Source of the DNA: Clostridiales bacterium
GTDB lineage: Bacteria; Bacillota; Clostridia; Christensenellales; JAISNN01
Direction: 5' to 3'
DNA: 33,112 nt
NCBI GenBank assembly: GCA_031276195.1
Contig: JAISNN010000047.1
Span: 1-33,112 of the forward strand
Every line of letters begins with the position of its first letter. The first letter of the stretch is position 1. The position numbers and the translations under genes were made by a program. This document shows positions 2,637 through 32,806 of this stretch, in pieces. A model generated the notes under the pieces. The model made no database searches. It saw only the letters and a program-made list of their open reading frames with translations, and was not told the DNA's origin.

Positions 2637-2682
2637 GCGTTATTTTTCGCGGTATAGTACCGCGTTTTATGTGTGTTTTTTT
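2637..2682. repeat. 46-bp dispersed repeat with 17-bp palindrome, copy 1
   Basis: This is identical over 46 bases to 3017-3062. At its centre (2648-2664) is CGCGGTATAGTACCGCG, a hairpin with arms CGCGGTA/TACCGCG and loop TAG, followed by TTTT on the plus strand. The same 17-mer occurs at 3028, 5928, 6053, 6142, 6232 and, inside a gene, at 17927. Confidence 0.9.
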
Positions 2683-3016: not shown

Positions 3017-3062
3017 GCGTTATTTTTCGCGGTATAGTACCGCGTTTTATGTGTGTTTTTTT
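3017..3062. repeat. 46-bp dispersed repeat with 17-bp palindrome, copy 2
   Basis: Identical to 2637-2682. The palindrome is at 3028-3044. Just left of it (about 2998-3010) is a half copy, TAGTACCGCG, suggesting an earlier, partly lost unit. Confidence 0.9.
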
Positions 3063-5927: not shown

Positions 5928-6248
5928 CGCGGTACTATACCGCGTTTTTTGCGTTATTTTGTCTTGTTTTTATTCCGTTTGTTTTGTGTTTTTTTATACG
6001 ATTTTTCGCGTGTTCTTTATACGGTTTTTTACTTATTCTTTATTCGTCGTTTCGCGGTACTATACCGCGTTTTTGCGTTATTTTGTCTTGTTTTTATTCC
6101 GTTTGTTTTTGCGGTTTTCGGGTGTGTTTTTATATGTTTTCCGCGGTATAGTACCGCGTTTTTTTCGTTATTTTGCCTTGTTTTTATTCCGTTTATTTTT
6201 GCGGTTTTCGGGTGTGTTTTTATATATTTTCCGCGGTATAGTACCGCG
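5928..6248. repeat. Array of four 17-bp palindromes
   Basis: Exact hairpins lie at 5928-5944 and 6053-6069 (CGCGGTACTATACCGCG) and at 6142-6158 and 6232-6248 (the reverse complement, loop TAG). The last three are spaced 89 and 90 bases apart in near-identical units containing ATTTTG(T/C)CTTGTTTTTATTC and TTTTGCGGTTTTCGGGTGTG. Each hairpin is followed by a run of T on the plus strand, that is, terminator-like but antisense to the surrounding minus-strand genes. No gene is seen in this 400-base spacer. Confidence 0.92.
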
Positions 6249-6259
6249 TTTTTAGAGAT

Positions 6260-7129
6260 TTAAACCGCGCTGTATTTTCTTATCCGAAGTTCCGCGCCGA
6301 CCTCGCCCGCAAGCCTTTTGCACTTCTCGATTTCATCCTCTCCGATCGTGTCGACGACGGACAAAATCACCCTCTTTACCTTTCCGGCGCACTCCTTCGC
6401 AAATTCCAGCATAGCATAAAACCCCTCACCGCCGAAAGCGCAGCGGCATATTTCGTTATACCTCTCGGCGTTCGACGCGTTCAAACTTATGCCCACGGTG
6501 TCGACCGCGCCGCGCAGTATCCCGACTACCCTCTTGCAAATATCCTTTCTTTCCGGATTCTCATACGAACGGCAGCCGCCCGTTTCCGGATTTTTTCGCA
6601 AGTTGCAAACGCCGTCTTTTGTGTGGTTTTCATACGGATTGCAAATACCTTTCTCCTCCGAATCTTTCGCCGAACCGCTTTCCGCATAATTTTCCGGATT
6701 TTTTTGCAGGGTGCAAACGCCGTCTTTTGTGTGATTTTCATTACGGGTTTTCACCGATCCCGGATTTTTGTCCGCTTTTTTTTCGATTCGGTCGAGAACT
6801 TCGCGCCCTATGATGAGCGAAGCCTGTCCGTTCGTATTTAGGCGCGTTTTCTTCCCCTTTCCTTTCAAAAAACGTCCGATTTCGATTAATTTTTCAAAGG
6901 CGTAGAGGGGTTCGCCGAAACCGCAAAATACAAATTCCGCGTATTTGTCCAAATTCATACCCCTCAATTCGGCTATAATCTCCTCCGCAGACGGCTCATT
7001 TTCCAGCCAAAGGTTATGTCCGCCCACTCCGTCGGCGGTGTTTCTGACGCAAAAATCGCAATTGTTACTGCAAAGATTGGTGAGATTTATGTACAGTTTG
7101 TCTTGGTAGCCGTAAAGATAAGTGTTCAT
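6260..7129 (-). CDS. TatD-associated radical SAM protein with an 82-residue repetitive insertion
   Basis: The core has CxxxCxxC at residues 20, 24 and 27 for the 4Fe-4S cluster, then FCGFGEPL (68-75), both typical of small radical SAM enzymes encoded beside tatD (TIGR04038-like). The reaction of this family is not established. The core would be about 207 residues, as expected. Between residue 118 (after DRIEKK) and residue 201 (VVGILRGAVDTVGIS) sits an 82-residue hydrophilic segment. It contains two copies of ENHTKDGVC(T/N)L(Q/R)KNPE, encoded by 48-base direct repeats at 6586-6633 and 6694-6741, 108 bases (36 codons) apart. The insertion splits the fold between the motif after the glycine-rich GEP loop and the following strand, and keeps frame. 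It lies directly downstream of tatD. Confidence 0.88.
   Translation of the reverse strand: MNTYLYGYQDKLYINLTNLCSNNCDFCVRNTADGVGGHNLWLENEPSAEEIIAELRGMNLDKYAEFVFCGFGEPLYAFEKLIEIGRFLKGKGKKTRLNTNGQASLIIGREVLDRIEKKADKNPGSVKTRNENHTKDGVCTLQKNPENYAESGSAKDSEEKGICNPYENHTKDGVCNLRKNPETGGCRSYENPERKDICKRVVGILRGAVDTVGISLNASNAERYNEICRCAFGGEGFYAMLEFAKECAGKVKRVILSVVDTIGEDEIEKCKRLAGEVGAELRIRKYSAV
6586..6741 (-). repeat. In-frame 48-bp direct repeats inside the radical SAM gene
   Basis: The two copies (6586-6633, 6694-6741) differ at only a few positions. Both begin CCGGATTTTTT on the plus strand and share CAAACGCCGTCTTTTGTGTG. They lie entirely in the extra segment of the protein, not in the conserved fold. 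Confidence 0.9.
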
Positions 7130-8736: not shown

Positions 8737-10932
8737 CTATCTCACCGTGCCGCCGTCCGCGCTGTCCGCCGTAACGATCGCCAGATTGTGTTCTCCGTCT
8801 TCGGCGCAGAGAATCATACCTTCCGAAACGATTCCTCTCAACTTCGCGGGCTTTAAGTTCGCGACGATGACGACCGTTTTTCCGATCATTTCGGCGGGCG
8901 AAAATTGGAGAGCGATTCCGCTGACGACCGTCCTGGTTTCCTCTCCGCATTTTAGCGTCAATTTCAAGAGTTTATCCGATTTTTCAACCTTTTCACACGC
9001 CGTAACCTTCGCCGTTTTAAGTTTGATTTTCATAAAATCGTCGATGCTTATAAATCCGTTTCCGGGCGCGTCCGCGTCTTTATTTTCCGGCGGTTCTATA
9101 CCGTTTTTTCCGATATTTTTCTCGCAAGAATTTTCAAGAGTCTTCACGCCGTTTCCGGCATCCTTTACACAAGATTTTTCCGCAGTTTCCGCGCATTTTC
9201 CGGCATCCTTTGCACAAGATTTTTCAAGCGTTTCCGGAGATTCTATACCGCTCTTTTCCGCGCTTTTTTTACGAGAATTTCCGACCGTTTCCGGCGGTTC
9301 TATACCGCTCTTTTCCCCGCCTTTTCCGGAAGGCTTTTCAAGAGTTTTCGCAGATTCCGCGCCGTCCTTTTCCGCGAAATATTTCAGTTCCGCGGCGACG
9401 TCAACCCTCGGAAAAAGCGGCGGAATTTTGGTTATTACGCTCCCCGCTTTCAGCCCTCCGAATTTTTTTATGCCGTCAAATCCCGAAAGTTCTTTTTTGT
9501 CCGCCGAAAACGCCGCGAGAATTTTCTCCGCCGTCCCGGGCAAAAAGGGCGACAGCGCGGCGGCGATAAATCTGATCGTTTCCGCAAGGGTATACAATAC
9601 CGTATCCAGCCTGTCCTTTTCGCCGTTTTTGTTCAACGCCCACGGCGCGCATTCGTCGATATATTTATTGCACGCCTGCGCAAGCCCGATAATCTCGCAC
9701 AGGGCTTCCGGAATCAACAGTTTATCCGCAAGTTCCGTGATCTTCGGCAACAGCCTCTCCGCGGCGGCGGCAAGCGCGCTATCGATCGGTAAATATTCGG
9801 ACGGCGCGGGCAAAATCCCTCCGCGGTACTGCGATATCATAGCCGCCGTCCGGCTGACAAGATTCCCGAGATCGTTGGCAAGGTCGTTGTTTACGCGGTT
9901 TAAAAAAATCGAATTCGTATAATTTCCGTCCTGCCCGAAAGGAATTTCCCTCAAAAGGTAATACCTCACCGCGTCCACGCCGTACCGCGACGAAAGTTCG
10001 ACGGGATCTACGGTATTGCCCTTGCTCTTGCTGATCTTGTCCCCCGAAAAAGTCATCCAACCGTGCGCGTAGATTTTTTTCGGAAGCGGAATGTCAAGCG
10101 CGGTCAAAAACGCGGGCCAAATAATCGAATGAAAACGGACGATCTCCTTTCCCATCATATGAATATCGGCGGGCCAAAACTTCTCGAAAAGTCCCGGATT
10201 CTCAGACTTGTAGCCCAGCGCGCTGACGTAGTTGTTCAACGCGTCCATCCAAACGTATATGACGTGCTTAGGATCAAACGGCACGGGTATCCCCCATTTT
10301 AAAGTCGTCCTGCTCACGCAAAGATCGGCAAGCCCGGGCTTTAAAAAATTGTTTATCATCTCGTTGCGGCGGCTTTTCGGCTCCAAAAAATCGGGGTTTT
10401 CCTCGAACAGTTTCTCGATTTTGGCTTGGTATTTTGAAAGACGGAAAAAATAACTCTCCTCTTTCATCAATTTTACCTCGCGCCCGCAATCGGGGCATTT
10501 CCCGTCGATAAGTTGCGCGTCCGTCCAAAAAGACTCGCACGGCACGCAATAATGCCCCGTGTATTCGCCGAGATAGATGTCCCCCTTTTCATACAGTTCC
10601 GTAAAGATTTTTTGCACGGCGGCGATATGCTCTTCGTCCGTCGTGCGGATAAATTTATCGTACGAGATCCCGAGCAAAGCCCAAAGTTCTTTCAATTTAA
10701 ATACCTTTTCGTCCACGTATTCTTTGGGCGAAACGCCGCATTTTTCCGCGTTCGTCTGGATTTTTTGCCCGTGTTCGTCCGTTCCCGTGAGGTAAAAAAC
10801 GTCGAACCCCTGCTTGCGCTTGAACCGCGCCAGACAATCGCACATAACCGTGGTGTAACACGTCCCGAGATGCCAATTTCCGCTCGGAAAATATATCGGC
10901 GTCGTAATGTAAAATTTCTTTTTGTTTTTCAT
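8737..10932 (-). CDS. metG: Methionyl-tRNA synthetase with a 105-residue repetitive insertion
   Basis: MetRS charges tRNA-Met in the cytoplasm. The 731-residue product has the class I signature at residues 21-24, here HLGT instead of the usual HIGH/HLGH. It also has FYLTGTDEHGQK, a zinc knuckle (Cys129, Cys132, Cys146, Cys149), KISKSKG (299-305) and a C-terminal tRNA-binding fold of EMAP/Trbp111 type (about 627-731). Between the anticodon-binding helical domain and that C-terminal domain lies a 105-residue insert (about 522-626). It is made of repeats such as EKSGIE(P/S)PET and EKSC(A/V)KDAG(K/N). Variants of the 17-base palindrome (GGCGGTTCTATACCG at 9089-9103 and 9293-9309) are read there as G-I-E-P-P. 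The start has AGGGTAGG upstream. It heads the tatD/rsmA run. Promoter at 11093-11121. Confidence 0.96.
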   Translation of the reverse strand: MKNKKKFYITTPIYFPSGNWHLGTCYTTVMCDCLARFKRKQGFDVFYLTGTDEHGQKIQTNAEKCGVSPKEYVDEKVFKLKELWALLGISYDKFIRTTDEEHIAAVQKIFTELYEKGDIYLGEYTGHYCVPCESFWTDAQLIDGKCPDCGREVKLMKEESYFFRLSKYQAKIEKLFEENPDFLEPKSRRNEMINNFLKPGLADLCVSRTTLKWGIPVPFDPKHVIYVWMDALNNYVSALGYKSENPGLFEKFWPADIHMMGKEIVRFHSIIWPAFLTALDIPLPKKIYAHGWMTFSGDKISKSKGNTVDPVELSSRYGVDAVRYYLLREIPFGQDGNYTNSIFLNRVNNDLANDLGNLVSRTAAMISQYRGGILPAPSEYLPIDSALAAAAERLLPKITELADKLLIPEALCEIIGLAQACNKYIDECAPWALNKNGEKDRLDTVLYTLAETIRFIAAALSPFLPGTAEKILAAFSADKKELSGFDGIKKFGGLKAGSVITKIPPLFPRVDVAAELKYFAEKDGAESAKTLEKPSGKGGEKSGIEPPETVGNSRKKSAEKSGIESPETLEKSCAKDAGKCAETAEKSCVKDAGNGVKTLENSCEKNIGKNGIEPPENKDADAPGNGFISIDDFMKIKLKTAKVTACEKVEKSDKLLKLTLKCGEETRTVVSGIALQFSPAEMIGKTVVIVANLKPAKLRGIVSEGMILCAEDGEHNLAIVTADSADGGTVR
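9055..9370 (-). repeat. Repeat-derived coding insert in metG
   Basis: On the plus strand TTTTCCGGC- and TCTATACCG-containing blocks recur: TTCTATACCG at about 9094, 9241 and 9299, and CCGGCATCCTTT(A/G)CACAAG at about 9157 and 9202. The translation is rich in Lys, Glu, Ser, Gly and Asn, and lies in the linker between two folded domains. Confidence 0.85.
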
Positions 10933-14180: not shown

Positions 14181-14984
14181 ATGGTTACGATAAAATATAA
14201 AAAGACCGCCGCCGCCGTGTATATATCTCATATCGATATATTCCGGGCGGTCTATCGCGGCATTCGGCGCGCAAACCTCGACGTCGCATATTCAAAAGGC
14301 TATAACGCCCACGCCGAACTCTTTCTGTCTCCGCCTCTGCCCCTTTTCGCTTACAGCGACTGCGAATATTTTACCGCAGATACGAAAGAGAACGCCGACG
14401 AATTTTTTAAAAGATATTCCGCGGCGGCGCATAACCTTTTGCCGCCCGTATCGCGGTTCTATACCGCGAAAAATCCCAACCTCGCCGGGAAAATATTTTC
14501 CGCCGACTACTCTTTGGAAATCCCGGGCGCAACCGCCGCACATATAAAAAAACTGCTCGAAAAAGACGAAATAGTTTTCACCAACCGAAACGGAAAAGAA
14601 AAAAATATACGCCCGTATATCTATCGCGCCGAAATAATTCCGTACGCTCCCGGGATCGAAAACGACGGTTCGCAAAGCGTAAACGCAGAAAATAACGCCA
14701 TAAAAAACGCCGGCTTGAAAAACGAAAACCAAAATGAAAATTCCCAAAAACCGAACGGCAAAAATGATGAAAACGCCGGCTTGAAAAACGCCTTTGGCGG
14801 TACTATAATCAGAATCAATATCGATTCGACGAACCTCCGCGCCGAAACCGCCGCCGCGGAAATAGAAAGCCTTTCGGGACAAAAATGCCGGAAAATCACA
14901 AAGACCGCCCAATACGTCAAAATCGACGGAAAGATAATCGAAGCCGACGAATATTTGACAGAACTTTCCAAATTAAATTTTTAG
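14181..14984 (+). CDS. DUF2344 / TIGR03936 radical SAM-linked protein with a short repetitive insertion
   Basis: The 267-residue product starts like the family (IKYKKTAAAVYISHIDIFRAVYRGIRRANLDVAYSKGYNAHAELFLSPPLP) and is the usual partner of the TIGR03960 protein upstream. The role of the pair is unknown. The conserved fold is interrupted at about residues 159-205 by a 47-residue Asn/Glu/Lys-rich segment holding two copies of (K/E)NAGLKN, with AACGCCGGCTTGAAAAACG at 14709 and 14771. A full 17-base palindrome variant, CGCGGTTCTATACCGCG, lies at 14452-14468. It is read as S-R-F-Y-T-A in a part that looks homologous to the family. AAGGAAAG precedes the ATG by about eight bases. Gene spacing is 298 bases, longer than usual for this pair. 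Confidence 0.9.
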   Translation: MVTIKYKKTAAAVYISHIDIFRAVYRGIRRANLDVAYSKGYNAHAELFLSPPLPLFAYSDCEYFTADTKENADEFFKRYSAAAHNLLPPVSRFYTAKNPNLAGKIFSADYSLEIPGATAAHIKKLLEKDEIVFTNRNGKEKNIRPYIYRAEIIPYAPGIENDGSQSVNAENNAIKNAGLKNENQNENSQKPNGKNDENAGLKNAFGGTIIRINIDSTNLRAETAAAEIESLSGQKCRKITKTAQYVKIDGKIIEADEYLTELSKLNF

Positions 14985-15720: not shown

Positions 15721-15975
15721 CGCTTTTACCTCCTTTTTAGACTGCGGTTTTCAGAAAATATTTTTTAAAAAACCGCTTTATATTGCAATAATACGCAAAA
15801 AGAGAAAAAAGTGTTCGTTAAGTTTTTAGTTCCGCCGGATTTATTTATGCCGTATTGAACTTATTTATTCTATACCAAATATCCTTTGCGGCATATTCTT
15901 TGCCGTGTATTACTTGCAGTGTATTATTTGAGATATATTCTTTGCCGTGTATTCTTTACTCCGTATTTTTTAGCA

Positions 15976-16287
15976 TACCGCGTTGCGCATTCTCAACGCG
16001 TTTACCGTGAATTGCCTTCCGTTTTTTATATTCTCCGCATTTCTTTCCGCGCTTACCGCGTTGCGCATTCTCAATGCGTTTACCGTGAATTGCCTTACGT
16101 TCTTTATATTCCGCGCATTTCTTTCCGCGCATACCGCGTTGCGCATTCTCAACGCGTTTACCGTGAATTGCCTTACGTTTTTTATATTCTCCGCATTTCT
16201 TTCCGCGCATACCGCGTTGCGTATTCTCAACGCGTTTACCGTGAATTGCCTTCCGTTCTTTATATTCTCCGCATTTGCTCCGCGCTT
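15976..16287. repeat. 78-bp tandem repeat, four copies, starting at the DUF3343 stop codon
   Basis: TACCGCGTTGCG(C/T)ATTCTCAA starts at 15976, 16054, 16132 and 16210, exactly 78 bases apart. Because 78 is divisible by three, several frames stay open and give 26-residue repeats, but none has a credible start and ribosome site. The rightmost unit ends with CCGCGCTTAC, where the minus-strand DUF3343 gene has its stop codon (16286-16288). The same CGCTTAC is found inside the array. Confidence 0.92.
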
Positions 16288-16570: not shown

Positions 16571-17040
16571 CCGTTCAAAGTTTACCGCTATGACGGCATT
16601 AAGCGCATAAAAAGCGGAAGCGGAAAGCGGCCGCACGGTCAAACAAAAACATAAAGCGTTTAAAGCGCAATCGAGAAATTATAGTTCGGCATAAAACAAA
16701 GCCTTCAAAAAAAATGAGAAACAGCAATTCGGCATAAAATAAAGCGTTCAAAAAACAACCGATAAACATTAATTCATACATAATAAGGCGTTCAAAAAAA
16801 CGGAAATTATAATGCAAAGCAAAATAAAGGCGTTCAAAAAAACGAAAAATAACAATGCGAAATAAAATAAAGACATTCAAAAAAACAACCGATAAACATT
16901 AATTCATACATAATAAAACGTTCAAAAAAACGGAAATTATAAGGCAAAGCAAAATAAAGCCTTCAAAAAAAGAAAAATTATAGTGCAAAATAAAATAAAA
17001 ATACGGAAAACGCGGTCGAAAAATAGCGATCCGCGCAAAA
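16571..17040. repeat. A-rich direct repeats of about 130 bp between DUF3343 and the desulfurase
   Basis: CAACCGATAAACATTAATTC starts at 16756 and 16886, 130 bases apart, each followed by CATACATAATAA and GTTCAAAAAAACGGAAATTA. Shorter AAAGC(G/C)TTCAAAAAA units fill the rest. The spacer is strongly A-rich on plus, the sense strand of the desulfurase gene. No gene is seen. Confidence 0.85.
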
Positions 17041-17062: not shown

Positions 17063-18565
17063 ATGATATATTTAGACAACGCCGCCACAAGCCGGTTTAA
17101 GCCGCAAACCGTCCTCCGCGCCGTCATAAACGAACTCAAAAACGGCGCGAATCCGGGACGCGGAGCGCATTCCGACTCGATCCGCGCCGCCGCCGCCGTT
17201 ATGAACGCCCGCGCCGCCGTCCGTACCCTCGCCGGCGACCCGCAAGCCGAAGTCGTCTTTACGAAAAACTGCACCGAAGCCCTAAACCTCGCGATCTTCG
17301 GAACACTCAAAAACGGCGGACACATCATCGCCACCGATAACGAACACAATTCCGTTCTGCGTCCGCTGTTTGAATTAAAACGACTCGGGAAAATCCGATT
17401 GACAATCCTCCCGTCCGGACAATACGGCGCGCCCTCCGCGAAAGACGTCGAAAACGCGCTTACCCCCGAAACTTACCTCGTATGCGTCAACCATATCTCG
17501 AACGTTACGGGCGCGAAAGCCGACGTCCGATCTATCGGACGGCTGACCGCGGAACGCGGAATCCTCCTCCTCGTCGACGGCGCGCAATCCCTCGGACACG
17601 CCGAAATCGATATGAAAAAATACGGCATAGATATGCTGGCGGCGGCGGGGCATAAAGGGCTGCACGGACCGCAGGGAACGGGGTTTTTGGCGTTTAACCG
17701 CGGACTTGCGGCGGCGGAAAATAATACGTTTTACGGCGGTATAGCGTTGCAAAATTATGAGGAAAATAACGGGGGGGTTAACGGTATAGAATCACAAAAC
17801 GATGAAAGAAATAACGGATTTTTTAACGGTATAGAATCACAAAATTACGAGAAAAATAACGGGGTGGTTAACGGCGCAAAAACGCAAAATTACGAAGAAA
17901 ATAATACGGAAAAAAACGGGCTTTTCCGCGGTATAGTACCGCGGAATAACGCGGAAAACGGCGAACCTTTTAAGAGCATTGCACCGCAAAATTATGATGA
18001 AAATAAAGTGATCTTAAATGTCGGAAATAACGCGGAAAACACCGTATTCCAAGAGCGGAAAAAAAGCGGATTCTCCGGAAAAATAACCTTGAAACCTATC
18101 CTCTTCGGCGGCACGGGGACGGCAAGCGACAGCGTATACCAGCCGTCCTCCGCGCCCGAAGCCTTTGAAAGCGGCACGGTCAATACGCCCGGAATTTGCG
18201 GACTCGCCGAAGGCATAAAATGGACGCTTGAAAATAAAAAAGAAATAGAAGAAAAAATCCGCGTACTTTCACGCGAACTCCTAAACGGACTTGCGTCCAT
18301 AAAAAAAGTTATACTCTATACCGCGCAAAACGACCTCAACGGCGTCGTATCTTTTAATGTCGAGGGTATGACTTCCTCCGACGCCGGCGATATTCTGAAC
18401 GAAAATTACGGCATAGCCGTCCGAACCGGTCTGCACTGCGCCCCCCTCGTCCATAACCGCCTCAAAACACTCAAAAACGGCGCGGTGCGCGTCGGAATCG
18501 GTTACGTAAACACACGATCCGATATCAAAAAATTGCTCTCCGCCGTGAACGATATGACACGCTAA
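17063..18565 (+). CDS. Cysteine desulfurase with a ~125-residue repetitive insertion
   Basis: This PLP enzyme of the SufS/CsdA-like group (TIGR01977-type) takes sulfur or selenium from cysteine or selenocysteine. It has YLDNAATS at the start, the PLP lysine in AAGHKGLHGPQG (Lys198), LKPILFGGTG (343-352) and the persulfide cysteine in RTGLHCAP (Cys459). The family has about 380 residues, and this protein has 500. The excess lies between FNRG (211-214) and LKPILFGG. It is a tandem-repetitive segment of QN(Y/D)(E/D)E(N/R)NN-G-x-x-NGIESQ units. At 17927-17943 it contains the exact palindrome CGCGGTATAGTACCGCG, read R-G-I-V-P-R. AAGGAG lies eleven bases before the ATG. An unusually good hairpin follows at 18588-18623. 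The neighbouring DUF3343 suggests a Se/S role. Confidence 0.94.
   Translation: MIYLDNAATSRFKPQTVLRAVINELKNGANPGRGAHSDSIRAAAAVMNARAAVRTLAGDPQAEVVFTKNCTEALNLAIFGTLKNGGHIIATDNEHNSVLRPLFELKRLGKIRLTILPSGQYGAPSAKDVENALTPETYLVCVNHISNVTGAKADVRSIGRLTAERGILLLVDGAQSLGHAEIDMKKYGIDMLAAAGHKGLHGPQGTGFLAFNRGLAAAENNTFYGGIALQNYEENNGGVNGIESQNDERNNGFFNGIESQNYEKNNGVVNGAKTQNYEENNTEKNGLFRGIVPRNNAENGEPFKSIAPQNYDENKVILNVGNNAENTVFQERKKSGFSGKITLKPILFGGTGTASDSVYQPSSAPEAFESGTVNTPGICGLAEGIKWTLENKKEIEEKIRVLSRELLNGLASIKKVILYTAQNDLNGVVSFNVEGMTSSDAGDILNENYGIAVRTGLHCAPLVHNRLKTLKNGAVRVGIGYVNTRSDIKKLLSAVNDMTR
17735..18085 (+). repeat. Repeat-derived coding insert of the desulfurase
   Basis: Blocks of GGTATAG(A/C)(A/G)-x-CAAAA(T/C)(T/G)A(T/C)GA recur four to five times with the GGT-ATA codon pair always in the same frame. 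The exact 17-base palindrome sits at 17927-17943. The translation is dominated by Asn, Glu, Gly and Lys. Confidence 0.9.
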
Positions 18566-23696: not shown

Positions 23697-23724
23697 AAAA
23701 ACGCGGTTCTATACCGCGTTTTTT
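23697..23724 (+). terminator. Palindrome-based intrinsic terminator
   Basis: AAAAACGCGGTTCTATACCGCG followed by seven T. The core is the same 17-mer variant found inside the DUF2344 gene at 14452. Here it has the full shape of a terminator for the plus-strand gene upstream. Confidence 0.75.
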
Positions 23725-23839: not shown

Positions 23840-25765
23840 ATGGAAAATTTTTATAACGATTCAAACGCGCTTTTTAATCCGTTCGACAACTCCGCCGCCG
23901 TGTTCGACTCCGGCTCGGGCTTTACGCGCGACAGCGTGTTTACCCCCGAATCGGTCGATTCGGCTTACAAAAACGACGACTCGATCTTGGACGCGGGTTC
24001 GGGATTCGACTCTTCCGCGCCGCAAAATATCAACCAAAACGGCACGGAAAACCGCGGTTCTATGCCGCGTCGCAATTCGGATTTTTACACTTCCGCGCCG
24101 CAAAATATCAACCAAAACGACACGGAAAACCGCGGTTCTATGCCGCGTCGCAATTCGGATTTTTACACTTCCGCTACACGAAACGGCAGGGAGCGAAATA
24201 TTATTCCCGACGACATATCGGCGGACGCGGTCGAAAAACCCGACTGGCATTCGGACAAAATCGCCGAGGACAGCCGCGCCGACGGCTTCGCCCTAAACGA
24301 CGAATGGGATTCCGAAACGGCCGAACCCTCTTTGAGCGGTATAAGTATAAGCGACGAACCGGGCGCGAAAATTCAAACCGCCGCGCCGAATGCAAAAGTT
24401 CAAACCGATGAATCCGATTCAAAATCAAATCTTAACGGAAATTATAAAACGCAAACCGATAAAACTTCGGAAAAATCACCTTCGAACACCACGTCCGAAA
24501 ACCAAACCGACGCGCCGAATGCGAAAGTTCAAACCGATGAATCCGATTCAAAATCAAACCTTAACGGAAATTATAAAACGCAAACCGATAAAACTTCGGA
24601 AAAATCACCTTTGAACGCTACGTCCGAAAACCAAACCGACGTACCGAATTCAAAAGTTCAAACCGGAAAAATTTCCGAAAAATCGCCTTTCGCCGCGCTC
24701 TCTCCGAACTCTTGGACTGTTCCCGACGGGGCTTTCGACGGCGTTCTCAAAAACGCGGAATATAGCAATGCCGGCGCGTTTCTAAACTCCCGCGACTTCG
24801 AGGCGGCGACGCTCGATATCGATACGGAAAAAGAATTAAACGGAAGCGACTTAAACCCCGACGGCTATGACGCGGTCATCGAAAATTCCGACGAAACCGC
24901 CCTTTCGGAAACTTACGACCCGACGGCGGCGAAACCTACAAAAACGGAAACTCACGACCCGACGGCGGCACGCACAAAAACCGTCTTTATAATCGGCGCG
25001 TCCGACGGAATCGGCGCGGAAACCGCCGCTCTTTTTCTCGAAAAAGGCTATTCCGTATACAACGCGTCCAGAACCCCTTCCGAACTTCCCGGCATCAAAA
25101 ACCTGATCGCCGACGCCGCAAACCCCGTTTCGCTCGACGCCGCCGTCGCGGAGGTACTCGCCGCCGAAAACAAAATCGATATTTTTATATATTCGGCGGG
25201 ATTTTCCCTCTCCGCGCCCTTTGAAAACACGACGGAGGAGGACTGCCGCTATCTTTTCGACGTAAATTTTTTCGGGTTTGCGCGCGCCGTCCGGCTGTTG
25301 ATTCCCCCGATGAGGCGCGCGGGCGGCGGAAAAATTATCGCGATAAGTTCTATGGGCGGCATATTCCCGATCGCTTTCGACGCGTTTTACAGCGCGAGTA
25401 AAGCGGCTCTCAATATGCTTGTCCGAAGTATCGCGTTGGAGGTCGAACCGTACGGAATTAAGGTTACGGCAATCTTGCCCGGCGGCACGGCGACGAATTT
25501 CACGCGGAAACGCAAAATCTATCCTCCGCGCGCGACGGGCGTATACGAACGGCGCATGATGAAAGCCCACGCCGCCCTGTCCGATACGGAGCAAAGCGGT
25601 ATGTCCGCCGCAAAGGTCGCAAAAACCGTCGCCGCCGCCGCGGAAAGCGAAAATCCGCCGCAAAAAGACGCGGTCGGGATCGTGAACAAGGCTCTTTCCG
25701 CCGCCGATAAGATCCTGCCGGAAAATATTACGAATATCTTTATAAAGAAAAAATATCATTTATAG
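23840..25765 (+). CDS. Short-chain dehydrogenase/reductase with a 379-residue repetitive N-terminus
   Basis: Residues 380-641 form a complete classical SDR: nucleotide-binding GASDGIG (386-392), a YSAG segment in the NNAG position, ISSMGG, and the catalytic YSASK (Tyr517, Lys521). An oxidoreductase acting on an alcohol or ketone is expected; the substrate is unknown. The first 379 residues are low complexity. A 26-residue repeat occurs twice (59-84, 85-110, SAPQNINQN(G/D)TENRGSMPRR...) and a 43-residue repeat two and a half times (181-223, 224-266, 267-284, (A/D)APNAKVQTDESDSKSNLNG...). The 26-residue repeat carries CGCGGTTCTATGCCGCG (24053-24069, 24131-24147), a near copy of the window's palindrome. 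AAAGG precedes the ATG at short spacing. There is no Met close to the SDR start, so the extension is probably translated. Confidence 0.85.
   Translation: MENFYNDSNALFNPFDNSAAVFDSGSGFTRDSVFTPESVDSAYKNDDSILDAGSGFDSSAPQNINQNGTENRGSMPRRNSDFYTSAPQNINQNDTENRGSMPRRNSDFYTSATRNGRERNIIPDDISADAVEKPDWHSDKIAEDSRADGFALNDEWDSETAEPSLSGISISDEPGAKIQTAAPNAKVQTDESDSKSNLNGNYKTQTDKTSEKSPSNTTSENQTDAPNAKVQTDESDSKSNLNGNYKTQTDKTSEKSPLNATSENQTDVPNSKVQTGKISEKSPFAALSPNSWTVPDGAFDGVLKNAEYSNAGAFLNSRDFEAATLDIDTEKELNGSDLNPDGYDAVIENSDETALSETYDPTAAKPTKTETHDPTAARTKTVFIIGASDGIGAETAALFLEKGYSVYNASRTPSELPGIKNLIADAANPVSLDAAVAEVLAAENKIDIFIYSAGFSLSAPFENTTEEDCRYLFDVNFFGFARAVRLLIPPMRRAGGGKIIAISSMGGIFPIAFDAFYSASKAALNMLVRSIALEVEPYGIKVTAILPGGTATNFTRKRKIYPPRATGVYERRMMKAHAALSDTEQSGMSAAKVAKTVAAAAESENPPQKDAVGIVNKALSAADKILPENITNIFIKKKYHL
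24013..24170 (+). repeat. 78-bp in-frame tandem repeat carrying the palindrome
   Basis: Two almost identical 78-base units encode 26 residues each. Each contains ACCGCGGTTCTATGCCGCG read as N-R-G-S-M-P-R. Confidence 0.93.
24380..24690 (+). repeat. 129-bp in-frame tandem repeat
   Basis: Two full units and a partial one, stepped by 129 bases (43 codons). CCGAATGCAAAAGTTCAAAC, CCGAATGCGAAAGTTCAAAC and CCGAATTCAAAAGTTCAAAC mark the starts. The substitutions between units are scattered. Confidence 0.93.
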
Positions 25766-29244: not shown

Positions 29245-29445
29245 ATTAACAAACCAAACCGGCAAACAAAATAAATCATAAACAAGCCGAATTAACAAAT
29301 AGAATAAATCATAAACAAGCCGAATTAACAAATAGAATAAATCATAAACAAGCCGAATTAACAAACGGAATAAATCACAAACAAACCGAATTAACAAACG
29401 GAATAAATCACAAACAAACCAAACCGGCAAACGGAATAAATCTAT
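29245..29445. repeat. 33-bp tandem repeat, about six copies
   Basis: (G/A)CCGAATTAACAAA(T/C)(A/G)GAATAA starts at 29286, 29319, 29352 and 29385, exactly 33 bases apart, with diverged units at both ends (CCGGCAAAC). The plus strand has stop codons in each unit. The minus strand is open but has no ribosome site. It lies about 100 bases before the acyltransferase start. Confidence 0.9.
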
Positions 29446-29543
29446 ATACAAACCAAATCAACCGAAAATCAATCTCTAATCACCTCCGCTAACCGCCGAC
29501 CGCTAAAATCTAATACAACCGCCGAAATACAAGGACAAAAAAA

Positions 29544-30795: not shown

Positions 30796-31596
30796 ATGAA
30801 TATATGGACGGAAAACAGCATAAAATTGGCAAATCAAAAAAATTATTTAGATTTGCTTTATAAAATATACCCTATGTCGATTAATTTACGCAGAGAATTA
30901 TCAGATTCCGCGGCAAAAGCGATAGAAACGCACTTTAATAATAAAGATAACTTATCTTTATTGAAAATACTGCTAAAAAACGATATATTCCCTCTTAAAG
31001 ATTCTTATGTCGCATATTTAAAAAAAGATAATTCCGCAATAGACAGAAATCCGCTGACGGTTGACAGACTTTCCGGAATGCTTTATGAGTTGGGTCTTGA
31101 TGAAATTATAGAAAGATCCTCCGCTCCGAAAGAAACGAACAGACAAATAGGTCCTTTATTTAGACAGTGGATACAAAACGGTTCATTAGGCGTTAAAGTT
31201 ACGGAGAATAGTAATGAATTTTTGAACTATGATGGCAATATTGTTCTAAATTCTTACGATGAAGCCAAAAAAGAATTTGCGGAAAAATATCTTGGCTATA
31301 GTCATAATAAAGGCTTGGATTTTATAGCGAAATTTAATAACAAATATGTTATCGCGGAAGCGAAATTTCTAACGGATTTCGGCGGACATCAAGACGCGCA
31401 ATATGCGGACGCAATTTCAACATTGAAAACCAATCTCAAACCGACAAAATATAATGTGATTAAAATAGCGATACTTGACGGAGTATTGTTTATTAATTGC
31501 GGCATGAAAACGTCAAAATCTATTAGAAGTGATTTTGACGATTCTGAAATAATATTATCCGCGGTATTACTTAGAGATTTTTTGTTTTCTTTGTAA
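30796..31596 (+). CDS. Type II restriction endonuclease, PD-(D/E)xK type
   Basis: The 266-residue product is identified by a nuclease core, KGLDFIAKFNNKYVIAEAKF (Asp175, then Glu188-Ala-Lys190), and by its position 13 bases before a DNA methyltransferase. It would cut unmethylated DNA at the sequence protected by the methylase. The recognition site cannot be read from the sequence. No signal, membrane or zinc motifs are seen. Codons are AT-rich (GAT, AAT, TTA, AAA), unlike the GC-richer neighbours, which suggests recent acquisition. The ribosome site is strong but sits in a hairpin. Another kind of PD-(D/E)xK DNA-binding protein is possible but less likely in this pairing. Confidence 0.87.
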   Translation: MNIWTENSIKLANQKNYLDLLYKIYPMSINLRRELSDSAAKAIETHFNNKDNLSLLKILLKNDIFPLKDSYVAYLKKDNSAIDRNPLTVDRLSGMLYELGLDEIIERSSAPKETNRQIGPLFRQWIQNGSLGVKVTENSNEFLNYDGNIVLNSYDEAKKEFAEKYLGYSHNKGLDFIAKFNNKYVIAEAKFLTDFGGHQDAQYADAISTLKTNLKPTKYNVIKIAILDGVLFINCGMKTSKSIRSDFDDSEIILSAVLLRDFLFSL

Positions 31597-31609
31597 AGGA
31601 GGGCGTTTT

Positions 31610-32806
31610 ATGTGTGCGGAATTAAATTTTAGCGGTAAAAGAAACAGGTCGGATATATTGAAAGATATGTTCGTTTTTTCACCTATCATCATAAAGGGTT
31701 CCGCTCTAATTTACGGCGATAATTTTAACGCAATGTCCTCTTTAGTAAACGGCAATATGAAAGGTAAAATTGACCTTGTATATATTGATCCGCCTTTTAA
31801 CACAAATCAAAACTTTTTAATGTCGGAAGAGAGAGTCGGCACAATCAGCAGAGCCGCGAATGGAATTGTGGCGTATTCGGATAATAAGTCTTTAGACGAA
31901 TACTTGGCATTTATCAGAGACAGACTCGTCGCGATACATGAACTTTTATCGGAAAAAGGGTCTTTGTATCTGCACATCGATAACAAGGTCGGGCATTATA
32001 TAAAAATTATTTTAGATGAAATTTTCGGATGCGATAATTTTAAAAACGATATAACCCGCAAAAAGTCAAATCCCAAAAACTTCAAACGCCGCGCTTACGG
32101 CAATCAAAAAGACACGGTTTTATTTTATTCAAAAAACAAAGATAAAAATATTTGGAACGAAATAACCGTTCAAAAAAGCGGGAAAGATTTAGAAACGAGT
32201 TTCCGCAAAATAGATAATAACGGACGGAGATACACAACCGTTCCGGTTCACGCGCCGGGTGAAACGCAAAACGGAGAAACGGGGTTGGCGTGGAAAGGTA
32301 TGCTTCCGCCCAAAGGCAGACATTGGAGGGTAAAACCGGCGGAATTAGATAGGCTTGATAATGAAGGATTAATAGAGTGGTCAAAAAACGGCGTGCCGAG
32401 ATTGAAAAAATACGCGGATGAACACAAGGGTAATAAAATACAAGATATCTGGTCTTTTATCGACCCTCAAAATCCCAATTATCCAACGGAAAAAAACTTA
32501 AAAATGATAGAAGGCATAATTTTGCAATCATCAAATGAGAATTCGATTGTATTAGATTGCTTCGCGGGCGGCGGAACAACGCTTCTCGCGGCAAGTAATA
32601 CAAAACGAACTTTTATAGGCATTGATAATTCTCAATGTTCTATACGCGCAATAAAAAAAAGATTAGAGGGCATATCTTTTGATTTTATTGACGCTAAAAC
32701 TTACGCTGACAATGATGCTGAATTAACCCCAAAAAACTTGTTTAATCAAGCGAAATCATATGATTTATTTTCCTATGAAGAGCAGTTATTAGAAGTTATC
32801 AATTAA
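31610..32806 (+). CDS. Beta-class DNA methyltransferase of the R-M pair (N6-A or N4-C)
   Basis: The 398-residue product has the catalytic motif IV DPPF (60-63, in DLVYIDPPFNTNQNF) before the SAM-binding motif I FAGGGTT (about 318-324). This order is typical of beta-class exocyclic amino methyltransferases. The region between holds a target-recognition part (about 150-290). It methylates the site cut by its partner and so protects host DNA. The ribosome site AAAGGAGGG overlaps the stop codon of the endonuclease gene, giving tight coupling. It is AT-rich like its partner and unlike the rest of the window. Whether it modifies adenine or cytosine cannot be settled here. Confidence 0.95.
   Translation: MCAELNFSGKRNRSDILKDMFVFSPIIIKGSALIYGDNFNAMSSLVNGNMKGKIDLVYIDPPFNTNQNFLMSEERVGTISRAANGIVAYSDNKSLDEYLAFIRDRLVAIHELLSEKGSLYLHIDNKVGHYIKIILDEIFGCDNFKNDITRKKSNPKNFKRRAYGNQKDTVLFYSKNKDKNIWNEITVQKSGKDLETSFRKIDNNGRRYTTVPVHAPGETQNGETGLAWKGMLPPKGRHWRVKPAELDRLDNEGLIEWSKNGVPRLKKYADEHKGNKIQDIWSFIDPQNPNYPTEKNLKMIEGIILQSSNENSIVLDCFAGGGTTLLAASNTKRTFIGIDNSQCSIRAIKKRLEGISFDFIDAKTYADNDAELTPKNLFNQAKSYDLFSYEEQLLEVIN

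What the first reader, a model, noticed from the sequence alone, without database searches (positions are those of the whole stretch)
17927..17943. Exact intergenic palindrome read as codons in the desulfurase
CGCGGTATAGTACCGCG, present exactly in six intergenic places (2648, 3028, 5928, 6053, 6142, 6232; the 5928 and 6053 copies as reverse complement), also occurs exactly inside the coding insert as R-G-I-V-P-R. This ties the intergenic hairpin family to the coding inserts directly.
Basis: seen in the sequence. Interest (0 to 1): 0.78.

Follow-up and report, generated by a model that had tools for sequence, protein, structure and literature searches.

The report
Genome-wide 17-bp palindrome, mostly between genes
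An uncultured Clostridia bacterium carries 93 exact copies (and hundreds of near copies) of one 17-base palindrome, almost all between genes but a few read as codons; it is a real, species-specific repeat, but its few gene copies mostly arose by base changes rather than by insertion, so the desulfurase copy does not by itself show that the element jumps into genes.

Summary
Observation confirmed: all seven exact copies exist. The genome holds 93 (about 0.0002 expected); five congeners hold 0, 0, 0, 1 and 1. The desulfurase insert (aa 213-336) is absent from all congeners, so an empty site exists. But the link "intergenic hairpin = maker of coding inserts" is only partly supported. Of 93 exact copies 85 lie in spacers, nearly all between co-directional genes, flanked by A-tracts on the coding strand, at spacings that are multiples of about 11.1 bp. 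Eight lie in genes, only one (this one) in a repeat-built insert. Six sit in conserved positions and align without a gap to 27 congener orthologs: they arose by substitution. The desulfurase insert is a 124-aa linker expansion built on 45-bp units, A-rich and helically phased like spacer DNA; the palindrome is one 17-bp part. No Y1/RAYT transposase, GTAG/CGTC tag, compensatory stem change, terminator geometry or paralogous empty site was found. Most likely: an untagged REP-like/HIP-like iterated DNA palindrome amplified in one species. How it spreads is unproven: copying with neutral decay fits spacer copies; in-place gain is needed for isolated gene copies. A second palindrome family (457 copies) shares the genome.

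The parts
17927..17943 (+). Exact 17-mer read as R-G-I-V-P-R inside the desulfurase linker insert
17063..18565 (+). Cysteine desulfurase (Aminotran_5) that carries the insert
17699..18070 (+). Species-specific 124-aa linker insert (aa 213-336), absent from all congener orthologs; A-rich, helically phased
17750..17904 (+). Array of 45-bp units inside the insert, with half-palindromes GGTATAG at 17738, 17783 and 17828
2648..2664 (+). Exact spacer copy
3028..3044 (+). Exact spacer copy
5928..5944 (-). Exact spacer copy, in an array with 6053, 6142 and 6232 (spacings 125, 89, 90 bp)
6053..6069 (-). Exact spacer copy
6142..6158 (+). Exact spacer copy
6232..6248 (+). Exact spacer copy
23702..23718 (-). 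Spacer copy with 1 mismatch (GGTATAGAACC variant)
14452..14468 (-). Copy with 1 mismatch read as S-R-F-Y-T-A in the DUF2344 gene 14181-14984; aligns without a gap to two congeners, so a substitution-type copy
9058..9357 (-). Expanded linker of methionyl-tRNA synthetase with 45-bp repeats and a degraded copy (SGIEPP, 9293-9309, 3 mismatches); most of it missing in congener G002
24012..24174 (+). Two 78-bp repeats in the N-terminal part of a short-chain dehydrogenase gene, each with a copy (24053, 24131; 2 mismatches) read as R-G-S-M-P-R

Best explanation
CGCGGTATAGTACCGCG is a short, untagged, highly iterated DNA palindrome amplified in this one species. Shown: it lives mainly in A-tract spacers between co-directional genes, multiplies there in tandem arrays whose units keep helical phase (multiples of about 11.1 bp), and is kept as a sequence rather than as an RNA stem. 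Shown: isolated gene copies arose by base substitution where the protein tolerated R-G-I-V-P-R or [S/T]-R-Y-Y-T-A. Shown: the desulfurase copy lies in a linker enlarged by tandem duplication of A-rich, helically phased, in-frame DNA. Inferred: recognition or copying of the 17-mer at the DNA level (a protein site, or short-patch conversion onto near matches) disperses and renews it, and the linker inserts come from the same duplication process that lengthens spacers.
For: 93 exact copies here against 0-1 in each congener; 85 of 93 in spacers, 118:5:3 co-directional:convergent:divergent; spacings on an 11.1-bp ladder; 180 one-sided against 1 compensatory stem change; six conserved gene copies ungapped against 27 congener orthologs; five G000-specific gene copies against none in 9 Mb of congeners, P = 3e-4; exact copies in coding DNA far above codon expectation; bipartite motif GCGGTATAGNNNCGC enriched over codon expectation in G001, G004 and G005 too; other perfect hairpins at chance level, so the process is sequence-specific; inserts share spacer composition and phasing.
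Against: No binding protein or copying enzyme is known. The mismatch distribution fits a burst with neutral decay, so continuing maintenance is not needed for the spacer copies. Gene copies are few (6-7), gene models are home-made, and codon models underestimate near matches in congeners about five-fold. Phasing of palindromes may only follow from phased A-tracts, which occur without palindromes too.
Confidence: 0.45

Rival explanations
1. A purely selfish REP-like repeat: one burst of a hairpin element copied into spacers by an unknown or lost enzyme, now decaying neutrally; the isolated gene matches are coincidence helped by the codon habits of the genus.
For: Species-restricted burst, Poisson-like decay with mean about 1.8, spacer location, hairpin of REP size, A-tracts on both sides compatible with insertion into A-runs, and a second spacer-only palindrome family of 457 copies in the same genome.
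Against: No Y1_Tnp gene; no GTAG or CGTC tag; no paralogous empty site; the isolated gene copies need another cause.
Confidence: 0.35
2. A Rickettsia-palindromic-element-like unit that inserts in frame into genes and made the desulfurase insert.
For: The exact 17-mer is in spacers and in one insert; degraded copies are in other inserts; the insert has an empty site in congeners.
Against: The palindrome is 17 of 372 inserted bases; six exact gene copies are not insertions; inserts have 45-bp and 78-bp tandem structure of their own and some inserts carry no palindrome (radical-SAM gene).
Confidence: 0.12
3. Intrinsic terminators or mRNA hairpins that recur because many genes end with them.
For: A 7-bp stem with a 3-nt loop beside A/T runs.
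Against: The T-run is on the antisense strand in 104 of 117 copies; few copies in convergent spacers and no bias to gene ends; stems not kept by compensation; no Rfam family in the window.
Confidence: 0.03

Closest known systems
REP sequences (GTAG- and CGTC-tagged families; PMC3733652)
   Same: Small hairpin repeats in high copy, species-specific, mostly in spacers, sometimes in genes, where clusters encode inserts of 20-82 aa
   Different: No GTAG or CGTC tag, no Y1/RAYT transposase in the genome, head-to-tail phased arrays, almost absent between convergent genes, no compensatory stem subfamilies, and gene copies without insertion
Rickettsia palindromic elements (reviewed in PMC10969869)
   Same: Family members both between genes and translated in frame within housekeeping genes
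   Different: RPEs are insertions of about 150 bp; here the unit is 17 bp and most exact gene copies are not insertions
HIP1 of cyanobacteria (PMC4390886)
   Same: A short palindrome hugely over-represented, present in coding DNA without being inserted, with a proposed DNA-level cause
   Different: Different, longer sequence, unrelated host, about 25 times denser in spacers than in genes, and no linked methyltransferase shown
DNA uptake sequences (PMC1939737)
   Same: Short iterated motif in genes and spacers
   Different: Those are not palindromes of this form; uptake was not testable here

Membership tests
REP (GTAG/CGTC) | Small palindromic hairpin repeat in high copy, mostly in spacers | tested here: met
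   93 exact copies, 85 in spacers, 7-bp stem with 3-nt loop
REP (GTAG/CGTC) | Unpaired GTAG or CGTC tag at one end | tested here: not met
   Flanks are A-runs, with G or A at +1; no tag in the positional profile
REP (GTAG/CGTC) | RAYT (Y1_Tnp) transposase in the genome (GTAG class) | tested here: not met
   PF01797 absent from the 94%-complete genome; the same search finds it in 5 of 14 control genomes. CGTC families are said to lack a transposase (PMC3733652)
REP (GTAG/CGTC) | Compensatory changes in the stem (subfamilies) | tested here: not met
   1 compensatory against 180 one-sided changes
Rickettsia palindromic element | Gene copies are in-frame insertions of the element | tested here: not met
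   Six exact gene copies ungapped against 27 orthologs; the desulfurase insert is much larger than the palindrome
HIP1 | Octamer GCGATCGC in cyanobacteria | tested here: not met
HIP1 | Over-represented in coding DNA without insertion (works-like test) | tested here: met
   but far weaker in genes than in spacers
MITE | Terminal inverted repeats with target-site duplication and a precise empty site | tested here: inconclusive
   A-runs on both sides could hide a duplication; no empty site among sampled paralogs
Intrinsic terminator | Hairpin followed by a T-run on the coding strand, at gene ends | tested here: not met
DNA uptake sequence | Bound and preferred during natural transformation | not testable with these tools
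   Uncultured organism

The most novel reading that the evidence does not exclude
A sequence-specific, transposon-free process writes one 17-bp palindrome into a bacterial genome in place, in spacers and at tolerant codons of conserved genes, while the same phased-A-tract duplication process enlarges both spacers and protein linkers.
Probability: 0.25. Interest if true: 0.75.

Novelty: new variant of a known kind. Interest (0 to 1): 0.48.

Why it matters
Short palindromes are usually treated as REP-type mobile units. Here one genome offers a family with no detectable RAYT partner, exact gene copies that align as substitutions and not insertions, and coding linkers with the DNA texture of spacers. 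That makes 'copied in' versus 'evolved in place' testable with a handful of conspecific genomes, and warns against reading a shared 17-mer as proof of mobility.

Tried and rejected
Terminator or RNA hairpin (wrong strand, no compensation). RAYT mobilisation. Phage origin (no viral contig). Generic palindrome perfection by template switching (other perfect hairpins at chance level). Precise empty sites among paralogous spacers (none). Selection shown by conservation of the AddA-like and amylase copies in G005 and G001: dropped, because codon identity at identical residues is about 0.5 anyway. Matches with up to 3 mismatches in congeners as proof of the family: in G001 mostly coding; codon use accounts for the half-site in G002, G003 and G005, but GCGGTATAGNNNCGC still exceeds it in G001, G004 and G005. 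The first concatenated query was too long and was shortened.

Full report
What is there. The 17-mer CGCGGTATAGTACCGCG is present exactly at the seven stated places. The window is one contig (C4) of a 2.27-Mb, 93-contig, 94%-complete genome, G000. That genome has 93 exact copies and none of the reversed control, against 0.0002 expected; 407 oriented matches at up to 2 mismatches with control 0; and 117 places with perfect 7-bp arms, 93 of them with the centre TAG/CTA. The five congeners have 0, 0, 0, 1 and 1 exact copies; 35 other genomes of the order have none. Two hits among 257 Gb of species genomes have the contig lengths of the congener contigs G001:C90 and G005:C47; their titles say 'MAG: Clostridiales bacterium'. 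That identification is an inference from contig length.

Where it sits. With a home-made codon-model gene finder, 85 of the 93 exact copies are in spacers and 8 in genes, about 25 times denser in spacers. Of spacer copies with 0-1 mismatch, 118 are between co-directional genes, 5 convergent, 3 divergent. They are flanked by A-runs on the coding strand in 104 of 117 oriented cases. Spacers are A-rich on that strand anyway (A5:T5 = 3.2:1), and two flanks at that ratio give about 10:1, so the flank bias needs no further cause. Because the T-run is antisense and positions inside spacers are roughly even, with few close to the next start codon, these are not terminators.

Helical phasing. A-tracts in spacers of this genus recur every 11-11.3 bp, with or without palindromes and also in congeners. 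Palindrome-to-palindrome spacings fall on the same ladder: 35, 46, 57, 68, 79, 90, 103, 114, 125 (R = 0.64, one spacing per locus, n = 32, p about 2e-6). Five coding inserts of the window are richer in A (0.31-0.45) than coding DNA as a whole (0.28) and at least as strongly phased as spacers, more than ordinary coding DNA. This is the best link between inserts and spacers; it is compositional, not proof of descent.

Sequence, not stem. In diverged spacer copies 180 stem changes are one-sided and one is compensatory. The left half CGCGGTATAG is better kept than the right. The mismatch distribution fits one burst with neutral decay, mean about 1.8. Once this family and a second one are set aside, perfect hairpins in spacers are at chance level (3 seen, 4.3 expected), so nothing perfects palindromes in general.

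The desulfurase. ORF 17063-18565 is an Aminotran_5 protein whose best solved relatives are cysteine desulfurases. All five congeners and more distant orthologs lack aa 213-336, and the alignment to solved desulfurases breaks at the same point, with 8 residues between the two aligned stretches in 5b7s. The insert is built on 45-bp units (17750-17904) plus less regular sequence, and the exact palindrome is one part of it. Its empty site is an empty site for the linker expansion, not for the palindrome.

Gene copies elsewhere. Six exact copies lie in conserved parts of genes: an HMGL-like enzyme (L028) and an ABC-2 permease (L069) by Pfam, and proteins that I read from sequence as histidyl-tRNA synthetase (L064), AsnB-like (L075), TrmK-like (L076) and AddA-like (L084). 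All 27 congener orthologs covering these sites align with no gap there, and their 17 bases differ from the palindrome by 0-12 substitutions. The AddA-like copy is identical in G005, and a C-terminal copy in an amylase-family gene (L072) recurs in G001; those two are probably inherited. The five G000-specific ones against none in 9 Mb of congeners have P = 3e-4 under an equal rate. Codon models expect at most about 0.003 exact copies per genome in coding DNA, although such models underestimate near matches in congeners about five-fold or more (compare). The bipartite motif GCGGTATAGNNNCGC is enriched over codon expectation (1-1.6) in G001 (45), G004 (41) and G005 (22), less in G002 (7) and G003 (3), with 334 in G000.

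Mechanism. Shown: amplification in one species; tandem growth in helical phase; substitution origin of isolated gene copies; a linker expansion carrying the desulfurase copy. Inferred: DNA-level recognition or short-patch copying as the driver. A selfish REP-like burst remains nearly as good for the spacer copies. REP membership proper fails on tag, transposase and stem compensation; RPE membership fails on insertion; HIP likeness is in manner, not identity.

Limits. Only about 218 kb of G000 (10%) was read, chosen around exact copies, so counts of near copies there are biased; genome-wide counts come from pattern searches. No conspecific genome was available. Gene calls are approximate and miss some AT-rich genes (e.g. 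the restriction-modification pair at the end of the window).

Noticed in passing
window 20, 120, 2783, 2894, 4786, 8114, 8218, 8322, 8509, 8613, 11667, 15203: A second dispersed palindrome family, CCCCTCCSNCGGAGGGG, inside a conserved stretch of about 45 bp (TCGCCCCACCCCTnnnnCCCCTCCCACGGAGGGGAATnTnAGGATA): 457 copies in this genome, 0 in five congeners and five other genomes; all 46 sampled copies are in spacers.
   Followed up: partly
G001 and G004 loci (L111, L116, L177-L226): Congeners have dispersed repeats of their own: G001 TTAGGGCAACCAAAAA... in 7 places, G004 ATGCAAAATGCAGAATTGCGG and GAGCTTGCGAAGAATCTAAAAC in 11-13 places.
   Followed up: no
L112 8488-9507 (G005); window 14181-14984: The DUF2344 gene has different, unrelated linker inserts in this species and in G005, and none in G003: linker expansion is a habit of the genus.
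   Followed up: partly
window 6260-7129: Radical-SAM gene with a repeat-rich internal stretch (ENHTKDGVC.. repeats) that holds no palindrome copy.
   Followed up: no
window 30796-32806: Tsp45I-type restriction enzyme gene followed by an N6/N4 DNA methylase gene.
   Followed up: no
window 15973-16276, 16693-16999, 29263-29462: Further tandem arrays in spacers without this palindrome, periods 78, 130 and 33 bp.
   Followed up: no
L089 1446-1542 and 1769-1865: Two exact copies with 97 bp of identical sequence in inverted orientation about 320 bp apart: a recent inverted duplication or an assembly feature.
   Followed up: no
spacers of G000 and congeners: A-tracts recur at 11-11.3 bp in spacers of the whole genus, palindromes or not.
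   Followed up: partly
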